From an uncultured Coriobacteriaceae bacterium (GTDB taxonomy: Bacteria > Actinomycetota > Coriobacteriia > Coriobacteriales > Coriobacteriaceae): a stretch of 64,000 nt of DNA. Where the stretch lies: assembly GCA_944322305.1 (NCBI GenBank), contig CALUOP010000002.1, positions 124,001 through 188,000 on the forward strand, given 5' to 3'. The notes below the pieces were generated by a model. That model did not search any database, was not told the origin of the DNA, and saw only the letters and a list, made by a program, of their open reading frames with translations. The stretch's first letter is position 1; every line of letters begins with the position of its first letter. Below, one piece after another: positions 16,088 through 57,093 of the stretch. A program made the position numbers and the translations under genes.

Positions 16088-17185
16088 ATGGAGTACCGCA
16101 TCCTGCCGCATGGCGGCGAGAAGATCAGCGTGATCGGCTTGGGGTCGGCCGGCATGCACAACGCCGACGACGCCGAGATCGAGCGCACTGTTGACGAGGC
16201 TGTGGACGCCGGCGTCAACCACTTCGACTTCATCCCCAGCGAGGCCGCCCCGCTCGCCGCGATGGGCCGGGCGCTGGGGCGGCACCGCGACCAGGTGCAC
16301 GTGCAGGTGCACATCGGCGCGCTGTACGCGAGCGGCGCCTACGGCTGGACCACTGCGGCCGAGCCGGCCATCGCCGAGTTCGAGCAGCGCCTGAAGGCCC
16401 TCGGAACCGACTACGCCGACTTCGGCTTCATCCACTGCATCGACGAGGATGCCGACCTCGACCGCGTGATGAACGGCGGCATCTGGGACTACGCGCAGGC
16501 GCGCAAGGCCGACGGAACCATCCGCCACCTGGCCTTCTCGACCCACAACCTGCACATCGCCCGCCGCCTGCTGGCCACCGACGCGTTCGACTTGGCCATG
16601 TTCAGCCTAAATCCCCTGTACGACTACACCGACGAGTCCGAGTACGGCCGCGGCGAGGCCGGCGACCGCATGGCGCTGCTGTGCGAGTTCGAGCGCGCGA
16701 GCGTTGGCGTGAGCGTGATGAAGCCGTTCGCGGGCGGGCAGCTGCTCGACGCCGCGCAGTCGCCGTTCGGGCGCGCCCTCACGCGTACGCAGTGCATTCA
16801 GTACGCGCTCGACAAACCCGGGGTGCTCACGGTGCTGCCGGGCGTGCACGGCCTGGCCGACCTGCACGACCTGCTCAGCTACTTTGACGCTACGCCCGCT
16901 GAGCACGACTACTCTGCGCTGGCCGCCATGGCGCCGCAGTCGCGCGAGGCCCGCTGCGTGTACTGCAACCACTGTCAGCCCTGCCCGGCCGGCTTGCAGA
17001 TAGGGCTCGTCAACAAGTACTACGACCTTGCGCGCGTGGGCGACGCCCTGGCCGAGGAGCACTATCGCAACCTGGAGAAGCACGCCGGCGACTGTGTTTC
17101 CTGCGGCCATTGCGACAAGCGCTGCCCCTTCGGCGTTGCGCAAAGCACCCGCATGGCCGAGATCGCTGCGTACTTCAGCGCATAG
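16088..17185 (+). CDS. Aldo-keto reductase with C-terminal ferredoxin domain (two 4Fe-4S clusters)
   Basis: The protein has 365 residues. The N-terminal two-thirds is an aldo-keto reductase barrel (VIGLGSAGMHNAD; FGFIHCIDEDADLDRVM). The catalytic Asp/Tyr region is divergent: HFDFIPSEAAP replaces DTAxxY, so classical carbonyl reduction is uncertain. The C-terminal part has two cysteine clusters, CVYCNHCQPCP (about 298-308) and CVSCGHCDKRCPFGV (about 342-356), which would bind two 4Fe-4S clusters. Such fusions occur widely in anaerobes as putative ferredoxin-linked oxidoreductases. ATG at 16088 follows GGAAAGGAG. It is transcribed alone. Confidence 0.9.
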   Translation: MEYRILPHGGEKISVIGLGSAGMHNADDAEIERTVDEAVDAGVNHFDFIPSEAAPLAAMGRALGRHRDQVHVQVHIGALYASGAYGWTTAAEPAIAEFEQRLKALGTDYADFGFIHCIDEDADLDRVMNGGIWDYAQARKADGTIRHLAFSTHNLHIARRLLATDAFDLAMFSLNPLYDYTDESEYGRGEAGDRMALLCEFERASVGVSVMKPFAGGQLLDAAQSPFGRALTRTQCIQYALDKPGVLTVLPGVHGLADLHDLLSYFDATPAEHDYSALAAMAPQSREARCVYCNHCQPCPAGLQIGLVNKYYDLARVGDALAEEHYRNLEKHAGDCVSCGHCDKRCPFGVAQSTRMAEIAAYFSA

Positions 17186-34353: not shown

Positions 34354-35033
34354 GGTGACCTCCCGATACGAAAAGCGGGGAATATCCCCGCCTTTGGATG
34401 GACCAGATCCTTTCGGCCAGCCTAGAAACTAAAGTTGCCGTACCATTCCCGCGCTTTCTTATGCACGAAAAGTGCCCACATAGCCATAAGGAACGGCGGA
34501 TGAAAAGTCGGATGCTCCGGGAAATTCATGTGCACTGTTAGGGAGGGCGGGTGCAGATGGCCGAACGTGCGAGACGTGCCGTCTGCACCCGTCCCGAATG
34601 ACAGGCGCTTGTCGTATGATCCGGGGCATCGTTCGATGATCGTTGGCGCTGCTTGCGATGTGACGGCAAGCTTGCAATTGGTCGCGACTTTATCATGACA
34701 GGAGCGGTTGGCCGTGCGGACGACGGCTAATTCTCGGATTTCCGGGAGTTGCGTGCGCTTTTTGAGGCTAAGTGGTTCTTAGAGGTCGAAGGGGCGTTGA
34801 ACCGGGCTCCTCGATGTCGAAGGGGCGACCAACTCGGTTGCTTGATGTCAGAAACGCGGTCAACCGCACGGCCCAATGCCGCATGGAATGGCCCAACGCC
34901 GCGCGCAACCAAAAGGCGCCAACAAAAACGGGGCCGAGAACGCGAAGGTTCAACGTAAACTCTTGCGTTCCCGGCTCCGTCTCATGCACGTGACAAGCTC
35001 AGGAAAGGTGAGGCGCTCCCGGCGTCCGCGGCG
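34354..35033. other. Gene-poor region with hairpins and array copy C
   Basis: No gene is supported. It contains a short hairpin (GCGGGGA/TCCCCGC, 34375-34391), a 16-bp hairpin with one bulge (34545-34560 with 34579-34595, 18-nt loop) and the family-2 array copy C (34675-34912). A 72-residue frame on the minus strand around 34460-34677 has no family resemblance and no good start. Confidence 0.6.
34675..34912. repeat. Mirror-image array, family 2 copy C
   Basis: Core 34729-34750 (AATTCTCGGA and TCCGGGAGTT arms). Left sites CGGTTGG and CAATTGG end at 34711 and 34681. Right sites begin at 34768 (CTAAGTG), 34798 (TGAACCG), 34829 (CCAACTC) and 34860 (TCAACCG). Distances from the centre are 28.5, 58.5, 89.5 and 120.5, as in the other copies. 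Confidence 0.8.
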
Positions 35034-52447: not shown

Positions 52448-52565
52448 CGTTTGCATATCTGCCGCGGGGGACGGGTACCAATGGCAGAAACGCGGGAGGT
52501 GCGCCGTCCGCACCTGCCGTCCGTGCTCGTCTCCCACGGCACGCCAAGACTTGTGAGGAGCTGCA

Positions 52566-53294
52566 ATGGCTATCAAGAAACGCAAGCACGCGCTCGAGAA
52601 GCGCGTTGTCGCCCCCGAGGCCGAGCGCGCCGGGCAGCCGGTGGTCATCACCATCGCGCGCGACTTCGGCGCCGAGGGCCACGAGGTGGGCAAGATGCTC
52701 GCAACCGAGCTGGGCATCCCGCTGTACGACAACGAGCTGCTGGTGCGCTCGGCCCTGCGCGCCGACGAGACGGTGGACAAGATGGCCGCCTACGACGAGC
52801 AGCTGGCGGCCGAGAACCTCGCTTTTCTGCCGGACCAGTTCGACGCGCGCACGCTGGCCGACAAGCTCTTTGAGAAGATGGCGCAGGTCATCCTCGACTT
52901 GGGCTCCACCGAGAGCTGCATCATCGAGGGGCGCCTGTCGGACTACCTGCTGCGCCGCAACCCCAACCACATCGCCGTGCTCGTGACCGCGCCGCTTGAG
53001 GACCGCATCACCATCGTGAGCGAGAAGCGCGGCATCACGCGCAAGAAGGGCGCCAAGCTGGTGAAGCGCATGCAGCGCGCCCGCGAGCAGTTCTACAAGC
53101 GCTACTCGGCCGGCAAGTGGAAGATGAGCGACGGCAAGGACCTGGTGGTGAACCGCGCCAAGCTGGGGCGCCAGGGCTGCGTCGACGTGATCGCCGCCGC
53201 GTACCGCTCCAAGCTGCGTGAGCTGGGCGTCTTTGAGGAAGAGGCCGCCTGCGCCGCCGAAAGCGCCAGCGCCGAGCCCACCGCAGAGGCGTAA
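52566..53294 (+). CDS. Cytidylate-kinase-like family protein
   Basis: The protein has 242 residues. After a basic N-terminus, VVITIARDFGAEGHEVGKML corresponds to the altered P-loop of the cytidylate-kinase-like family (AAA_26), then ELGIPLYDNELLVRSA and CIIEGRLSDYLLRRNPN. These proteins are common in gut anaerobes, and their substrate is not established. It follows the ABC operon by 118 bases and could be co-transcribed. The C-terminus is an Ala/Glu-rich tail. A hairpin with a conserved loop follows in its 3' region. Confidence 0.88.
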   Translation: MAIKKRKHALEKRVVAPEAERAGQPVVITIARDFGAEGHEVGKMLATELGIPLYDNELLVRSALRADETVDKMAAYDEQLAAENLAFLPDQFDARTLADKLFEKMAQVILDLGSTESCIIEGRLSDYLLRRNPNHIAVLVTAPLEDRITIVSEKRGITRKKGAKLVKRMQRAREQFYKRYSAGKWKMSDGKDLVVNRAKLGRQGCVDVIAAAYRSKLRELGVFEEEAACAAESASAEPTAEA

Positions 53295-53328: not shown

Positions 53329-53399
53329 CGAGCCGCCGGGGGACAAGAACCTGAGATCTGCCCGATATCAGATCTCAGAACCTTGTCTCCGGCGGCTCG
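53329..53399 (+). ncRNA. Structured 3' element, copy 1 (hairpin with CCCGATAT loop)
   Basis: Lower stem CGAGCCGCCGG/CCGGCGGCTCG and GACAAG/CTTGTC, a symmetric AAC/AAC internal loop, upper stem CTGAGATCTG/CAGATCTCAG and an 8-nt loop CCCGATAT (53361-53368). A sequence-divergent copy in reverse orientation lies at 53452-53518. The call is a candidate structured RNA; it could also be a protein site or terminator. Confidence 0.6.
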
Positions 53400-53451
53400 T
53401 GGTTCTCGGGCTCGCCGCGCGCCGTGTTCGCAATAACCGGGACATGCAAAA

Positions 53452-53518
53452 GGGCCGAGGACGATAAGGTCCAAAATCCGATATCGGGCGGATTTTGGGT
53501 TCTTATCGTCCTCGGCCC
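53452..53518 (-). ncRNA. Structured 3' element, copy 2 (same design, opposite strand)
   Basis: Read on the minus strand: lower stem GGGCCGAGGACGATAAG with its partner, internal loop AAC/AC, upper stem CCAAAATCCG/CGGATTTTGG, loop CCCGATAT, then TTTT. Stem sequences differ from copy 1 while loop, internal loop and the AAG...CTT closing pairs are kept. It lies in the 3' region of the M16C peptidase gene. Confidence 0.6.
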
Positions 53519-53580: not shown

Positions 53581-56500
53581 TTAGGCGAGGAGGTCCACCG
53601 GGGTGAGGCCGGCGCGGTTGTGCTCCACCAGGTCGCGCGAACCGAAGACGCAGGCCGGGGCTTCGGCGGCCATCTTGGTCACCGGGGCGCCCACGGCGCG
53701 CAGGGCCTCGGGCGTGGAGGCGAGGATCTCGGCGCGCAGCTGCTCGCGCAGGTTGGCCGGGCGGCGCGAGAAGTACGCGGCGTCCTGGCGGCGCGCCTGC
53801 GCGTAGGGCTTAACCGGCGCGTCGTGCGTGGCGGTGGTGGAGACCACGAGGCCTTCGAAGGCCGCTTCGTCGGGCTCGAAGGCGCTGAGCCAGGCGCCGG
53901 CCTCGGCGAAGCGCGCGAGCGTGGCGTCGAGCGCCGGGTCGCGGTAGGAGTAGAAGGCCAGCTGGCGGTCGGCCTGCACGCGGAAGCCGCAGCCGTAGGC
54001 GCCGCCCTTCACGCGCACCTCGTTCCAGAGGAAGTCGTAGGAGAGCGCGTTGGACGCCACGCCCCACACGCCCGAGGTCGCGAGCCCCAGAAGGCGCGGG
54101 TCGTGCGCCTGGGCGCAGAAGCAGATGTCGCTGGGGATGATGAAGGCCTCGTGCTTGTCTTCGGGCATGGGGACGTAGAGCTCCTTGATCGGCGCGGTGC
54201 GCGGCGCGAGCCCCAAGGTGCCGGCGGCGTCCCAGTAGCGGCGGTAGTCCTCGGCCGAGCCCACGAAGCTCGCCACGGCGCCGTCGGACACGAAGATGCG
54301 CGCGGAGAGCTCGCGGAGCTTCTCGGCCAGCTCGTGCTTGCGCGCGTCGTACGAGGCGATAAGCTCGCGCAGCCAGCGGTAGAAGTCCACGCCGCCGAGC
54401 TGCTCGCGCACCACGGCCGCAGGCGAGACGTAGGAAAGCGCGCGGGCCATGGCGGCGCCGTGGCCGGCGTTGAGGAAGCCCTGCTCGAGGTTGATGCGCA
54501 TCTGCGTGAGCACGTCCAAGATCTTGCCCTCGTCGTCGAAGCGCGTGGTGGCCCAGACCTCCTGCGGGATGCGCGCCAGCTCCGGGACCTTCTCGGACAG
54601 GGCGCCGGCCGCCACCACGAGCTTGGGGCGGGCCAGGCGCGGGCTCCCGGGCGCGTACACCTCGGTTGAGAAGGACAAAAAGCCCAGGTTGGCCTTGACG
54701 TAGCTGTCAAGCTCGCCGGCGCTCATGCGCTCAGTGCCCAGGCGCTTCAGGAGCTGCGCCAGCACGGTGACGTAGGGGAGCTCCTGGTAGCTGACGCCCG
54801 TGATGTCGAAGTAGGTGAGGGCGTAGGCCAAGCGGTTGGTGGGGATGCGGTGCGTGAGGCAGGGGATGGGCGCGCAGGTGTCAACCGTGAGCGCGGGCTC
54901 GGGGGCCGCCAGGCCGATGTCGGCAACCGTGAGGCGCGGCAGCGCGGCGGTTGCCTCCGGGGCGTCGGGCGCCTCCTGCGCGGCGCGCAGCTCGGCCTCG
55001 GCGGACACGACGCCTGCGAGCTCGGCGTCGGTCATCTGCGCTTTGAGCGCCTCCAGGCGCTCGGCCTCCGGGTCGCCGGCGCCCGACTCAACCGGCGCGA
55101 GCTCCACCAGGGCCCAGTGCTCGCTGTTGAGCACGAGCTCGTCCAGCAGCTGCTCGAAGTAGCCGCTGTCCAGCTTGGCGCGCAGGTTGGCGAAGATGTC
55201 GGCGTACTTGAGGCCGAGCGTGGCGGCGTCCTCGCTGTAGAGCCAGGTGGACAGTGCGTCGAGGGCAAGCACCACGCCGTCGGCGATGCCGTAGTCGCGC
55301 TGGCGCAGGTCGTACTCGTTGCTCGCGATGGTGGCCTCGAGGCGGTCGCGCGGGATGCCCTGCTCAACGAGGGCGCGGCAGCTGGCGAGGACGGTGTCGC
55401 GGAAGGCCTGAGCCACCGCGGGCTTGGCGTTGCGCAGCACGATGAGCTCGTAGGGCTGCAGGCAGGTGGCCTGGGTGTAGGAGCTCACGTCGCCGCCGAG
55501 CCCCGCGTCGAGAAGCGCGCGCTTCACGGGCGCCTCGTTGGAGCCCAAAAGCGTCTCGAACAGCACGTCGGCCGCCACGATGCGCTCGCGGTCGCAGACG
55601 TCGCCCAGCACAAAGGCGAGGCCCACCTGGGCGTTCTCTGGCGTGGTGGCCATCTCCACGCGGCGGTACGGGCACACCACGGGCTCCTGGCGCTCAAGCG
55701 GGTTCGGCTGGCCGGGGTTCTCGGCCGCGCCGTGCCCGCGCTTGCGCGCGGCGGCCTGCGCGCGGGCCTCGCCGCTCAGGTACTTGTCGTTCAAGAAGGC
55801 GAGCTCGCGCTCGACGTGCAGGTTGCCGTAGAGCACGATGAGGCTGTTGGCCAGGTTGTAGTGGCGCGCGTGGGTGTTGAGGAACTGCTCGTAGGTGAGG
55901 GTGGGGATGGCGCGCGGGTCGCCGCCGGACTCGCAGGCGTAGGCGGTGTTGGGGAAGAGCGCGCGGCTCACGGCGTCGTCCAGCACGTCGGAGGGGTCGG
56001 AGAGGGCGCCTTTCATCTCGTTGAAGACCACGCCGTTGTAGCGCAGGCGGCCGTCGCGCACGCCGGCGCCCTCGGGCACGTCGAGCTCCAGGTGCCAGCC
56101 CTCCTGCTCAAAGATCTGCGGCTTGGTGTAGATGGCCGGGTTCAGCACCGCGTCCATGTACACGTCCATGAGGTTCATCAGGTCCTGCTCGTTGGTAGAG
56201 GCCACGGGGTACACGGTTTTGTCCGGGTAGGTCATGGCGTTCAGGAAGGTCTGCATCGAGGTCTTGATGAGATCGACGAAGGGCTCCTTCACCGGGAACT
56301 TGGCCGAGCCGCACAGCACCGAGTGCTCCAGGATGTGGAAGACGCCCGTGTCGTCGGTGGGCGGGGTCTTGAAACCGATGGCGAAGGCCTTGTTGTCGTC
56401 GGCGCAGGCAAGGTAGAGCAGCCGCGCGCCGGAGGCCTTGTGGGCGAGCTCGAAGGCGGTGGCGTCGAGCTCGTCTATGCGCTCCGCGCGCGTGACAGTG

Positions 56501-56595
56501 AAGCCGGAGAGCTCCTGGCCGGGCGATAAGAGCGTGGGCGCGGACGCTTCGGCGGCGCCTGTGCCGACGGTGGGTGCGGTTTCGGGCGAAGTCAT
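53581..56595 (-). CDS. M16C metallopeptidase (presequence-protease-like)
   Basis: The protein has 1004 residues. The inverted zinc motif is HILEH (87-91), followed by VKEPFVDLIKTSMQTFLNAM and TYPDKTVYPVAS, the hallmark of M16C (PreP/Cym1-type) peptidases. It comprises four M16 modules; only the first has the active site, and the M16C-associated linker domain is in the middle. Family members degrade unfolded peptides in a closed chamber. No signal peptide, so cytoplasmic. Start 56595 follows GAGGAGC. It converges on the cytidylate-kinase-like gene. Confidence 0.95.
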   Translation of the reverse strand: MTSPETAPTVGTGAAEASAPTLLSPGQELSGFTVTRAERIDELDATAFELAHKASGARLLYLACADDNKAFAIGFKTPPTDDTGVFHILEHSVLCGSAKFPVKEPFVDLIKTSMQTFLNAMTYPDKTVYPVASTNEQDLMNLMDVYMDAVLNPAIYTKPQIFEQEGWHLELDVPEGAGVRDGRLRYNGVVFNEMKGALSDPSDVLDDAVSRALFPNTAYACESGGDPRAIPTLTYEQFLNTHARHYNLANSLIVLYGNLHVERELAFLNDKYLSGEARAQAAARKRGHGAAENPGQPNPLERQEPVVCPYRRVEMATTPENAQVGLAFVLGDVCDRERIVAADVLFETLLGSNEAPVKRALLDAGLGGDVSSYTQATCLQPYELIVLRNAKPAVAQAFRDTVLASCRALVEQGIPRDRLEATIASNEYDLRQRDYGIADGVVLALDALSTWLYSEDAATLGLKYADIFANLRAKLDSGYFEQLLDELVLNSEHWALVELAPVESGAGDPEAERLEALKAQMTDAELAGVVSAEAELRAAQEAPDAPEATAALPRLTVADIGLAAPEPALTVDTCAPIPCLTHRIPTNRLAYALTYFDITGVSYQELPYVTVLAQLLKRLGTERMSAGELDSYVKANLGFLSFSTEVYAPGSPRLARPKLVVAAGALSEKVPELARIPQEVWATTRFDDEGKILDVLTQMRINLEQGFLNAGHGAAMARALSYVSPAAVVREQLGGVDFYRWLRELIASYDARKHELAEKLRELSARIFVSDGAVASFVGSAEDYRRYWDAAGTLGLAPRTAPIKELYVPMPEDKHEAFIIPSDICFCAQAHDPRLLGLATSGVWGVASNALSYDFLWNEVRVKGGAYGCGFRVQADRQLAFYSYRDPALDATLARFAEAGAWLSAFEPDEAAFEGLVVSTTATHDAPVKPYAQARRQDAAYFSRRPANLREQLRAEILASTPEALRAVGAPVTKMAAEAPACVFGSRDLVEHNRAGLTPVDLLA

Positions 56596-57093
56596 AGTGC
56601 TCCTCGCGTACGGGCGCCGGACGGGGCGGACCCGGCCGGCGCGGTTGTGCAATACCTGCAAGTATACCCACCGGCGGAGCGGAGGGGGTGGCTGCAGGGG
56701 CATCTGGGATGCGGCGGCCGGCACGCAGGGGCGTGGCGCGGACGCGGGCGTGCCGCGGCGGGCAGAGAGTCGGATGCAGCTGCAGGCGCGGTGGGTGGAG
56801 AGTCGGATGCAGTTGCGGGCGCGTCGGGCGGACGGCTGGACACGGCTGCGGGCGCGGCGGATGGACGGTCGGAGAGCGCGGCGTTCTGTGGAGGAGTTGT
56901 GTGCGTCTGCGTGCGATGCCGGGATGTGCCCGCATTGCCCGAGCGGGTGCTTCAGCGGGATAAAGCAGCGCGCCCCTTTGCGTGCACACGGCCTATGAGC
57001 TGGTGTTTTTATCGTATGGGCGATGCTAGTATGGCGAGGGAAACATCACGGGGCGCCTGCGCGGGCGCCTTGGCGGACGCGGGGAGGATTGCG
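56596..57093. other. Intergenic region between divergent M16C and EamA genes
   Basis: No gene is supported in these 498 bases. Between about 56766 and 56865 there are three imperfect 32-bp tandem repeats (GAGTCGGATGCAGCTGC, GAGTCGGATGCAGTTGC, then a degenerate copy). TAGTAT near 57026 may be a -10 for the EamA gene. Confidence 0.45.

What the first reader, a model, noticed from the sequence alone, without database searches (positions are those of the whole stretch)
53329..53518. Two hairpins with identical loop and internal loop but different stems, one per convergent transcript
Copy 1 on the plus strand and copy 2 on the minus strand share the loop CCCGATAT, an AAC internal loop and AAG...CTT closing pairs, while nearly every stem base pair differs with complementarity kept. 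Each lies in the 3' region of its gene in the sense orientation. Conserved loops on covarying stems are the mark of a functional RNA. The loops of the two strands are also mutually complementary, so the two transcripts could pair.
Basis: partly seen in the sequence, partly recalled or inferred. Interest (0 to 1): 0.76.

Follow-up and report, generated by a model that had tools for sequence, protein, structure and literature searches.

The report
Dispersed hairpin family with conserved loop
The two hairpins belong to a family of dozens of DNA hairpins scattered between genes in two related bacterial species; their loop and a mid-stem bulge stay the same while the stems keep changing on both sides together, so they look like a new kind of REP-like extragenic element that often also serves as the end signal of a gene's transcript.

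Summary
The two hairpins are members of a dispersed family: 46 recognisable copies (plus 2 doubtful) in the own genome and 9 in one sister species. None was found in the two other genomes of the genus, in 63 of 65 family genomes, or outside the genus in a sample of 396 class genomes. Architecture: outer stem of about 17 bp, AAC/AAC internal loop, inner stem of 10 bp, loop CCCGATAT. Of 27 pairs, 23 covary. All 48 places are intergenic. 34 lie just behind a stop codon in sense (median 39 nt), 14 are antisense to the gene on their 5' side. Of 13 adjacent pairs, 11 face inward, whatever the gene order. Stems change on both sides at once with few intermediates, and G-U is not clearly favoured over A-C (21 v 16); the internal loop is closed 3/3 in 5 of 55 copies. 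This fits DNA template switching plus selection on loop and bulge. Best reading: a REP/BIME-like extragenic element, newly spread, often doubling as a 3'-end hairpin. It lacks the REP tag and a RAYT partner of its own.

The parts
53329..53399 (+). hairpin copy 1: outer arms 53330-53347 / 53382-53398, AAC 53348-53350 and AAC 53379-53381, inner arms 53351-53360 / 53369-53378
   Evidence: sequence, fold, model match 80.6 bits (G000:C2:177323-177405)
53361..53368 (+). conserved loop CCCGATAT of copy 1
   Evidence: 38 of 55 copies have exactly this loop, 9 have CCCGTTAT
53452..53518 (-). hairpin copy 2 (read on minus): outer arms 53502-53518 / 53452-53468, AAC 53499-53501, AC 53469-53470, inner arms 53489-53498 / 53471-53480
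   Evidence: sequence, fold, model match 84.9 bits (G000:C2:177445-177525)
53481..53488 (-). conserved loop CCCGATAT of copy 2
52566..53294 (+). gene upstream of copy 1, cytidylate kinase-like family protein, 242 aa
   Evidence: ORF, Pfam PF13189 E 1.9e-39
53581..56724 (-). gene upstream of copy 2 (convergent), M16C/PreP-type peptidase, ORF 1047 aa (my gene finder starts it at 56595)
   Evidence: ORF, Pfam PF08367 E 3.6e-50

Best explanation
The two hairpins are members of a dispersed, genus-restricted family of extragenic palindromic elements that resembles REP/BIME elements in behaviour. Shown: about 46 copies in this genome, all intergenic; conserved recognition features (8-nt loop CCCGATAT and a 3x3 AAC/AAC internal loop 10 bp below it); stems that differ between copies and between orthologues by paired changes; preference for the 3' side of genes; inward-facing pairs; presence in only two of four genomes of the genus. 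Inferred: (1) the element spread recently, since most copies are missing from the syntenic places of the sister species and outgroups have none; (2) something in the cell reads the folded hairpin through its loop and internal loop, as TnpA-REP reads REP hairpins through loop and mid-stem mismatch; (3) the stems are rewritten and kept perfect largely by template switching between the two arms during replication, which copies one arm onto the other and leaves the loop alone; (4) where a copy lands just behind a stop codon it serves as the 3'-end hairpin or terminator of that transcript, with a modest T-rich tail on the loop strand, and two copies facing each other insulate neighbouring transcription units.
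For: Family and covariation. Restricted spread: 2 of 4 genus genomes, 2 of 65 family genomes, 1 of 197 in an order sample that did not draw G001, 2 of 396 class genomes by core pattern. Turnover: of 48 places, 22 had a syntenic interval in the 1.19 Mb of G001 that I fetched; 6 carry a counterpart, 16 do not. G000-only intervals are longer by a median of 196.5 bp (12 intervals) against -34 bp in 17 control intervals, p 0.002. Pairs: 11 of 13 neighbours within 300 bp face inward, 2 tandem, 0 outward; p 1e-5 against 25%. Two-sided change: 7 orthologous hairpins, 189 pairs: 154 same, 20 one-sided, 13 two-sided Watson-Crick to Watson-Crick, 2 two-sided other. Intermediates: G-U 21, A-C 16 of 1107 cells, p 0.51. 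Internal loop wholly closed in 5 of 55 copies, 1 at two of three. The template-switch mechanism for hairpins that keeps the loop is described in PMC8794818 (passages). Location: 34 of 48 sense behind a stop, median 39 nt, IQR 30-62; 0 of 48 inside predicted genes. T in the 8 nt after the stem 2.5 against A before it 1.56, p 0.003.
Against: No conserved tag outside the stem and no target-site duplication, so no transposition footprint. Spacers and flanks are not shared between copies apart from a tandem duplication and a few short matches, so the pair is not a conserved mobile unit. No factor that would move or bind the element is identified; the single RAYT has its own, different flanking repeats. 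The T-tail polarity and the leaning of sense copies to G-U (20 G-U v 12 A-C; anti 1 v 4) are what RNA-level selection would give. The tRNA control (47 G-U, 0 A-C) is biased, since ARAGORN brackets mainly standard pairs.
Confidence: 0.5

Rival explanations
1. A family of transcription terminators or mRNA 3'-end hairpins whose loop and internal loop bind a protein or RNA partner; selection acts on the RNA, and antisense copies terminate divergent or antisense transcripts.
For: 34 of 48 places in sense a median 39 nt behind a stop; T-rich tail on the loop strand, higher in sense (2.8 of 8) than anti copies (1.75), p 0.04; some copies have TTTT or longer behind the stem; at one place the sister species has an unrelated long hairpin behind the same gene and G002 one behind the kinase gene.
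Against: Only 10 of 43 tails hold 4 or more T in 8, while the window has ordinary U-tract terminators; 12 of 32 copies between co-directional genes are antisense (p 0.22, no clear orientation bias); the copy at C5:92513 stands about 250 nt beyond an ordinary U-tract terminator; G-U and A-C intermediates equally rare.
Confidence: 0.33
2. A REP family mobilised by the genome's RAYT (IS200-like Y1 transposase).
For: One Y1_Tnp gene in G000 and one in G001, none in G002 and G003, the same distribution as the hairpins in the genus; NCBIfam REP_Tyr_transpos 71.3 bits, below its cut-off of 80.
Against: The two RAYT genes are flanked by other repeats (GGGGACGTGTTC in G000, GGGGACGGGTAC in G001); 52 of 64 family genomes have Y1_Tnp while only 2 of 65 have the hairpin; no GTAG-like tag.
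Confidence: 0.1
3. Ordinary terminators with chance loop identity.
For: Long GC-rich hairpins behind genes are common here.
Against: 46 clear copies with the same loop and internal loop; model E-values to 1e-18; in 1.19 Mb of G001 no other loop recurs among two-stem hairpins.
Confidence: 0.01

Closest known systems
REP / BIME elements and REPINs (GTAG- and CGTC-tagged palindromes; TnpA-REP recognition)
   Same: Extragenic, dispersed, imperfect hairpins in inverted pairs; in E. coli REP recognised through a conserved mid-stem mismatch and loop features (PMC8266576, PMC3733652, passages).
   Different: No GTAG or CGTC tag, two stems of about 17 and 10 bp (reported REP stems 5-13 bp), stem sequence not conserved, RAYT flanked by other repeats, only tens of copies.
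Intrinsic terminators
   Same: GC-rich hairpin shortly behind stop codons, some T-rich tails.
   Different: Weak U-tract in most, conserved loop and internal loop, 14 of 48 not in sense with the gene on the 5' side, one copy beyond a separate terminator.
Iron-responsive-element type hairpins (architecture only, recalled, not tested)
   Same: Conserved loop plus conserved bulge at fixed distance on free-running stems.
   Different: Different loop, spacing, length; no regulon visible among the neighbouring genes by eye.
Repetitive hairpin elements of mitochondria (sponges, Allomyces)
   Same: Short hairpin repeats that appear to spread between close species (PMC2800124, passages).
   Different: Mitochondrial; in sponges stems are conserved and loops vary, the reverse of here.
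Collinsella-1 RNA (RF01700)
   Different: 196-position model, no match in any of 4 genus genomes, none at E 10 on the locus.

Membership tests
REP (GTAG/CGTC super-families) | GTAG or CGTC tag beside the hairpin | tested here: not met
   No consensus tetranucleotide in alignment columns 1-7 or 76-83 over 41 copies
REP (GTAG/CGTC super-families) | stem 5-13 bp (Table 1 of PMC3733652) | tested here: not met
   about 17 + 10 bp in the family alignment
REP (GTAG/CGTC super-families) | RAYT gene flanked by the repeat | tested here: not met
   RAYT loci carry GGGGACGTGTTC (L246) or GGGGACGGGTAC (L401) repeats; no CCCGATAT hit in L401 and no such hairpin among the inverted repeats of L246
REP (GTAG/CGTC super-families) | extragenic, inverted dimers | tested here: met
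   0 of 48 in predicted genes; 11 of 13 neighbours inward-facing, gaps 36-165 nt
Intrinsic terminator | stable hairpin close behind a stop codon in sense | tested here: met
   34 of 48 places, median 39 nt; 14 of 48 not
Intrinsic terminator | U-tract after the hairpin | tested here: inconclusive
   T enriched but weak: 2.5 of 8, 10 of 43 tails with 4 or more T
Collinsella-1 (RF01700) or any Rfam 15 family | match to the covariance model at the gathering score | tested here: not met
Insertion-sequence derived MITE | target-site duplication | tested here: not met
   43 copies, no excess of direct repeats of 2-6 nt abutting the stems
Protein-bound RNA regulon | binding factor | not testable with these tools
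   needs pull-down or CLIP

The most novel reading that the evidence does not exclude
A new class of structure-read extragenic element: a dedicated factor reads only the loop and the AAC/AAC internal loop of a folded single strand, the element spreads without a fixed terminal sequence, and the stems are continually rewritten by template switching, so that copies share shape rather than sequence.
Probability: 0.27. Interest if true: 0.78.

Novelty: new variant of a known kind. Interest (0 to 1): 0.56.

Why it matters
Covariation is usually taken as proof of a selected RNA. Here is a natural set of 55 copies and 7 orthologue pairs in which stems change on both sides at once, G-U is not clearly favoured over A-C, and a three-base mismatch is closed all at once in 5 copies. 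That makes it possible to test how far template switching, rather than RNA selection, makes covariation. It also gives a young, countable element family in two sister species for finding the factor that spreads or reads it.

Tried and rejected
Chance loop identity: rejected. Pairing of the two transcripts by complementary loops: rejected, both sense loops are CCCGAUAU. Rfam and Collinsella-1: no match (no control genome rang for RF01700). RAYT as partner: not supported. Insertion of only the core into a pre-existing terminator: in the G000-only sites that I aligned I saw no terminator with the same outer stem in G001, but intergenic sequence has diverged too far to exclude it. Regulon: neighbouring genes, read by eye from their translations (names recalled, e.g. 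polynucleotide phosphorylase, RNase J, RNase III, ribosomal proteins), look like unrelated housekeeping genes. A second decayed hairpin beside single copies: none convincing. The sequence as such in print: a search on the 8-mers gave 476 papers, of which I saw the best 12 in the listing, none about this; searches for Coriobacteria/REP, for conserved-loop terminators and for repeated stem-loops showed nothing in their listings that describes it. One search ended with an error after its main counts were printed. Genes were called with my own codon-usage script, not a published finder. misread the 3' internal loop of copy C2:177323 as AA; the sequence shows AAC. In one search the loose 'core' flag marked the G001 intervals at C2:214932, C4:59749, C4:84844/84948 and C4:257129; the model finds no copy there.

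Full report
WHAT IS THERE. Between two convergent genes (cytidylate kinase-like, plus strand, ends 53294; M16C/PreP-type peptidase, minus strand, ends 53581) lie two long hairpins, 53329-53399 on plus and 53452-53518 on minus. Each has an outer stem of about 17 bp, an internal loop (AAC/AAC in copy 1, AAC/AC in copy 2), an inner stem of exactly 10 bp and the loop CCCGATAT. Folding energies are -55 and -49.4 kcal/mol, z -7.6 and -9.4.

THE FAMILY. The pattern AAGAAC-N10-CCCGATAT has 19 exact and about 20 near matches in the 2.35-Mb genome. I aligned 41 copies. In the structure given, 96.8% of 1107 cells pair (shuffled 68.8%), 23 of 27 pairs have a change on both sides, covariation score 0.744 against 0.215 in shuffles and at most 0.186 in slid versions; RNAalifold finds the same structure unaided. 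A covariance model finds 48 places in the genome down to 27.9 bits, many of them also on the opposite strand at a lower score. At two of the 48 (C1:148621, C3:35540) the loop is absent or degenerate, which leaves 46. Over these 46 and the 9 of the sister species, 38 of 55 loops are CCCGATAT and 9 CCCGTTAT; the internal loop is AAC/AAC in 38 of 55 by the script, 39 after correcting one misreading.

DISTRIBUTION. Genus: 2 of 4 genomes; G001 has 9 places. Family: 2 of 65. Order sample: 1 of 197, G001 not drawn. Class sample with a strict core pattern: 2 of 396, control pattern 0 in the genomes listed. Among the pattern matches in viral contigs (88) and species genomes (97 of 117 tested) the model finds none. 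Hairpins with two long stems and an internal loop are rare otherwise: in 1.19 Mb of G001 only this loop recurs, 4 times (the script counts each hairpin on both strands); 330 kb of G002 gave 2 chance structures.

CONTEXT. With my own gene calls, 0 of 48 places lie in a gene; 34 are in sense behind the gene on their 5' side (median 39 nt from the stop, IQR 30-62) and 14 are antisense to it; 14 fall in the class between convergent genes, 32 between co-directional genes (20 sense, 12 antisense, p 0.22) and 2 between divergent ones; two places (C1:323036, C3:298988) had no gene called on the 3' side within the stretch and were put in these classes by default. 25 of 48 places stand in clusters; of 13 adjacent pairs within 300 bp, 11 face inward, 2 are tandem, none outward (p 1e-5). 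Inward pairs also occur between co-directional genes, where the second copy is antisense in front of the next gene. After the stem the loop strand has 2.5 T in 8, before it 1.56 A (p 0.003); sense copies have 2.8, antisense ones 1.75 (p 0.04); only 10 of 43 tails have 4 or more T. One copy stands about 250 nt beyond an ordinary U-tract terminator (C5:92513).

EVOLUTION. Seven places are shared with G001 (six by synteny, one by alignment). In those seven, 189 pairs: 154 unchanged, 20 changed on one side, 13 changed on both sides from one Watson-Crick pair to another, 2 otherwise. One orthologue is identical, others have partly rewritten outer stems; three G001 copies show decay (5, 3 and 5 pairs that are not Watson-Crick). 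Of 22 G000 places with a syntenic interval in the fetched half of G001, 16 have no counterpart. The 12 distinct intervals with copies only in G000 are longer by a median 196.5 bp, 17 control intervals by -34 bp (p 0.002); regions chosen for holding hairpins are expected to be somewhat longer, so this is support, not proof, for insertion. The best paralogue match of a copy is 69-93% identical, about as far apart as orthologues are, so paralogues may be young although their stems differ. G-U and A-C mispairs are about equally rare (21 and 16 of 1107, p 0.51); split, sense copies have 20 and 12, antisense 1 and 4. tRNA stems of G001 gave 47 G-U and 0 A-C, but that control is biased by the tRNA finder. 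The internal loop is closed in all three positions in 5 of 55 copies, in two positions in 1, in one in 5. All-at-once closure and two-sided change are what template switching between the arms gives; PMC8794818 describes this for RNA hairpins, including that such priming keeps the loop (passages).

MECHANISM, AND HOW SURE. Shown: family, structure, location, pairs, turnover. Inferred: recent spread, a factor that reads loop and internal loop, stem rewriting by template switching, terminator or 3'-end role of sense copies. I give 0.5 to a REP/BIME-like element that often doubles as a 3'-end hairpin, 0.33 to an RNA/terminator family proper, 0.1 to RAYT-driven REPs.

MEMBERSHIP. It works like REP/BIME elements (extragenic, inverted pairs, hairpin with mid-stem mismatch; passages of PMC3733652 and PMC8266576) but is not filed as one: no GTAG/CGTC tag, stems too long, RAYT flanked by different repeats. 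The RAYT is in the same two genomes of the genus yet in 52 of 64 family genomes, and sits among GGGGACGTGTTC (G000) or GGGGACGGGTAC (G001) repeats. No Rfam family fits.

LIMITS. No expression data. Gene calls are from a simple script. The sister-genome comparison covers 1.19 Mb of about 2.3 Mb. Papers were seen only as listings or passages.

Noticed in passing
L246 (around G000:C4:265091-265420) and L401 (around G001:C1:68235-68564): A RAYT-like Y1 transposase gene lies beside the same conserved neighbour sequence in both species (blocks of 90% and 89% identity on either side), but the transposase region has only a 161-nt match at 67%, and the flanking repeats differ (GGGGACGTGTTC in G000, paired GGGGACGGGTAC in G001): transposase and repeat seem to have changed together.
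   Followed up: partly
window, 7 matches on both strands (e.g. behind the gene ending at 17185), and 20 in 1.19 Mb of G001: Another palindromic repeat family with outer arm TTCCGCATGCA and variable inside; 0 matches in 330 kb of G002. Its arms often contain CTTATCG, as do many outer stems of the family studied here.
   Followed up: partly
window 52453-52540: Large palindrome with GGGGACGGGTACCAATGGCAGA between the permease and the kinase gene; parts of it match several other places in the genome.
   Followed up: no
window 34377-34424 (-): DUF3800-XI RNA, 48.9 bits against a gathering score of 37.8.
   Followed up: no
L305 (G000:C4:130640-133960): Three copies of the hairpin in one intergenic region; the two tandem ones share diverged flanks as well by eye, so a local duplication; only one has a counterpart in G001.
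   Followed up: partly
L273 (G000:C1:112691), L305 (G000:C4:132142), L300 (G000:C5:92513), L301 (G000:C2:214932), L280 (G001:C1:316156): Copies in which the internal loop is closed, so that the outer and inner stems form one continuous stem around the loop.
   Followed up: yes
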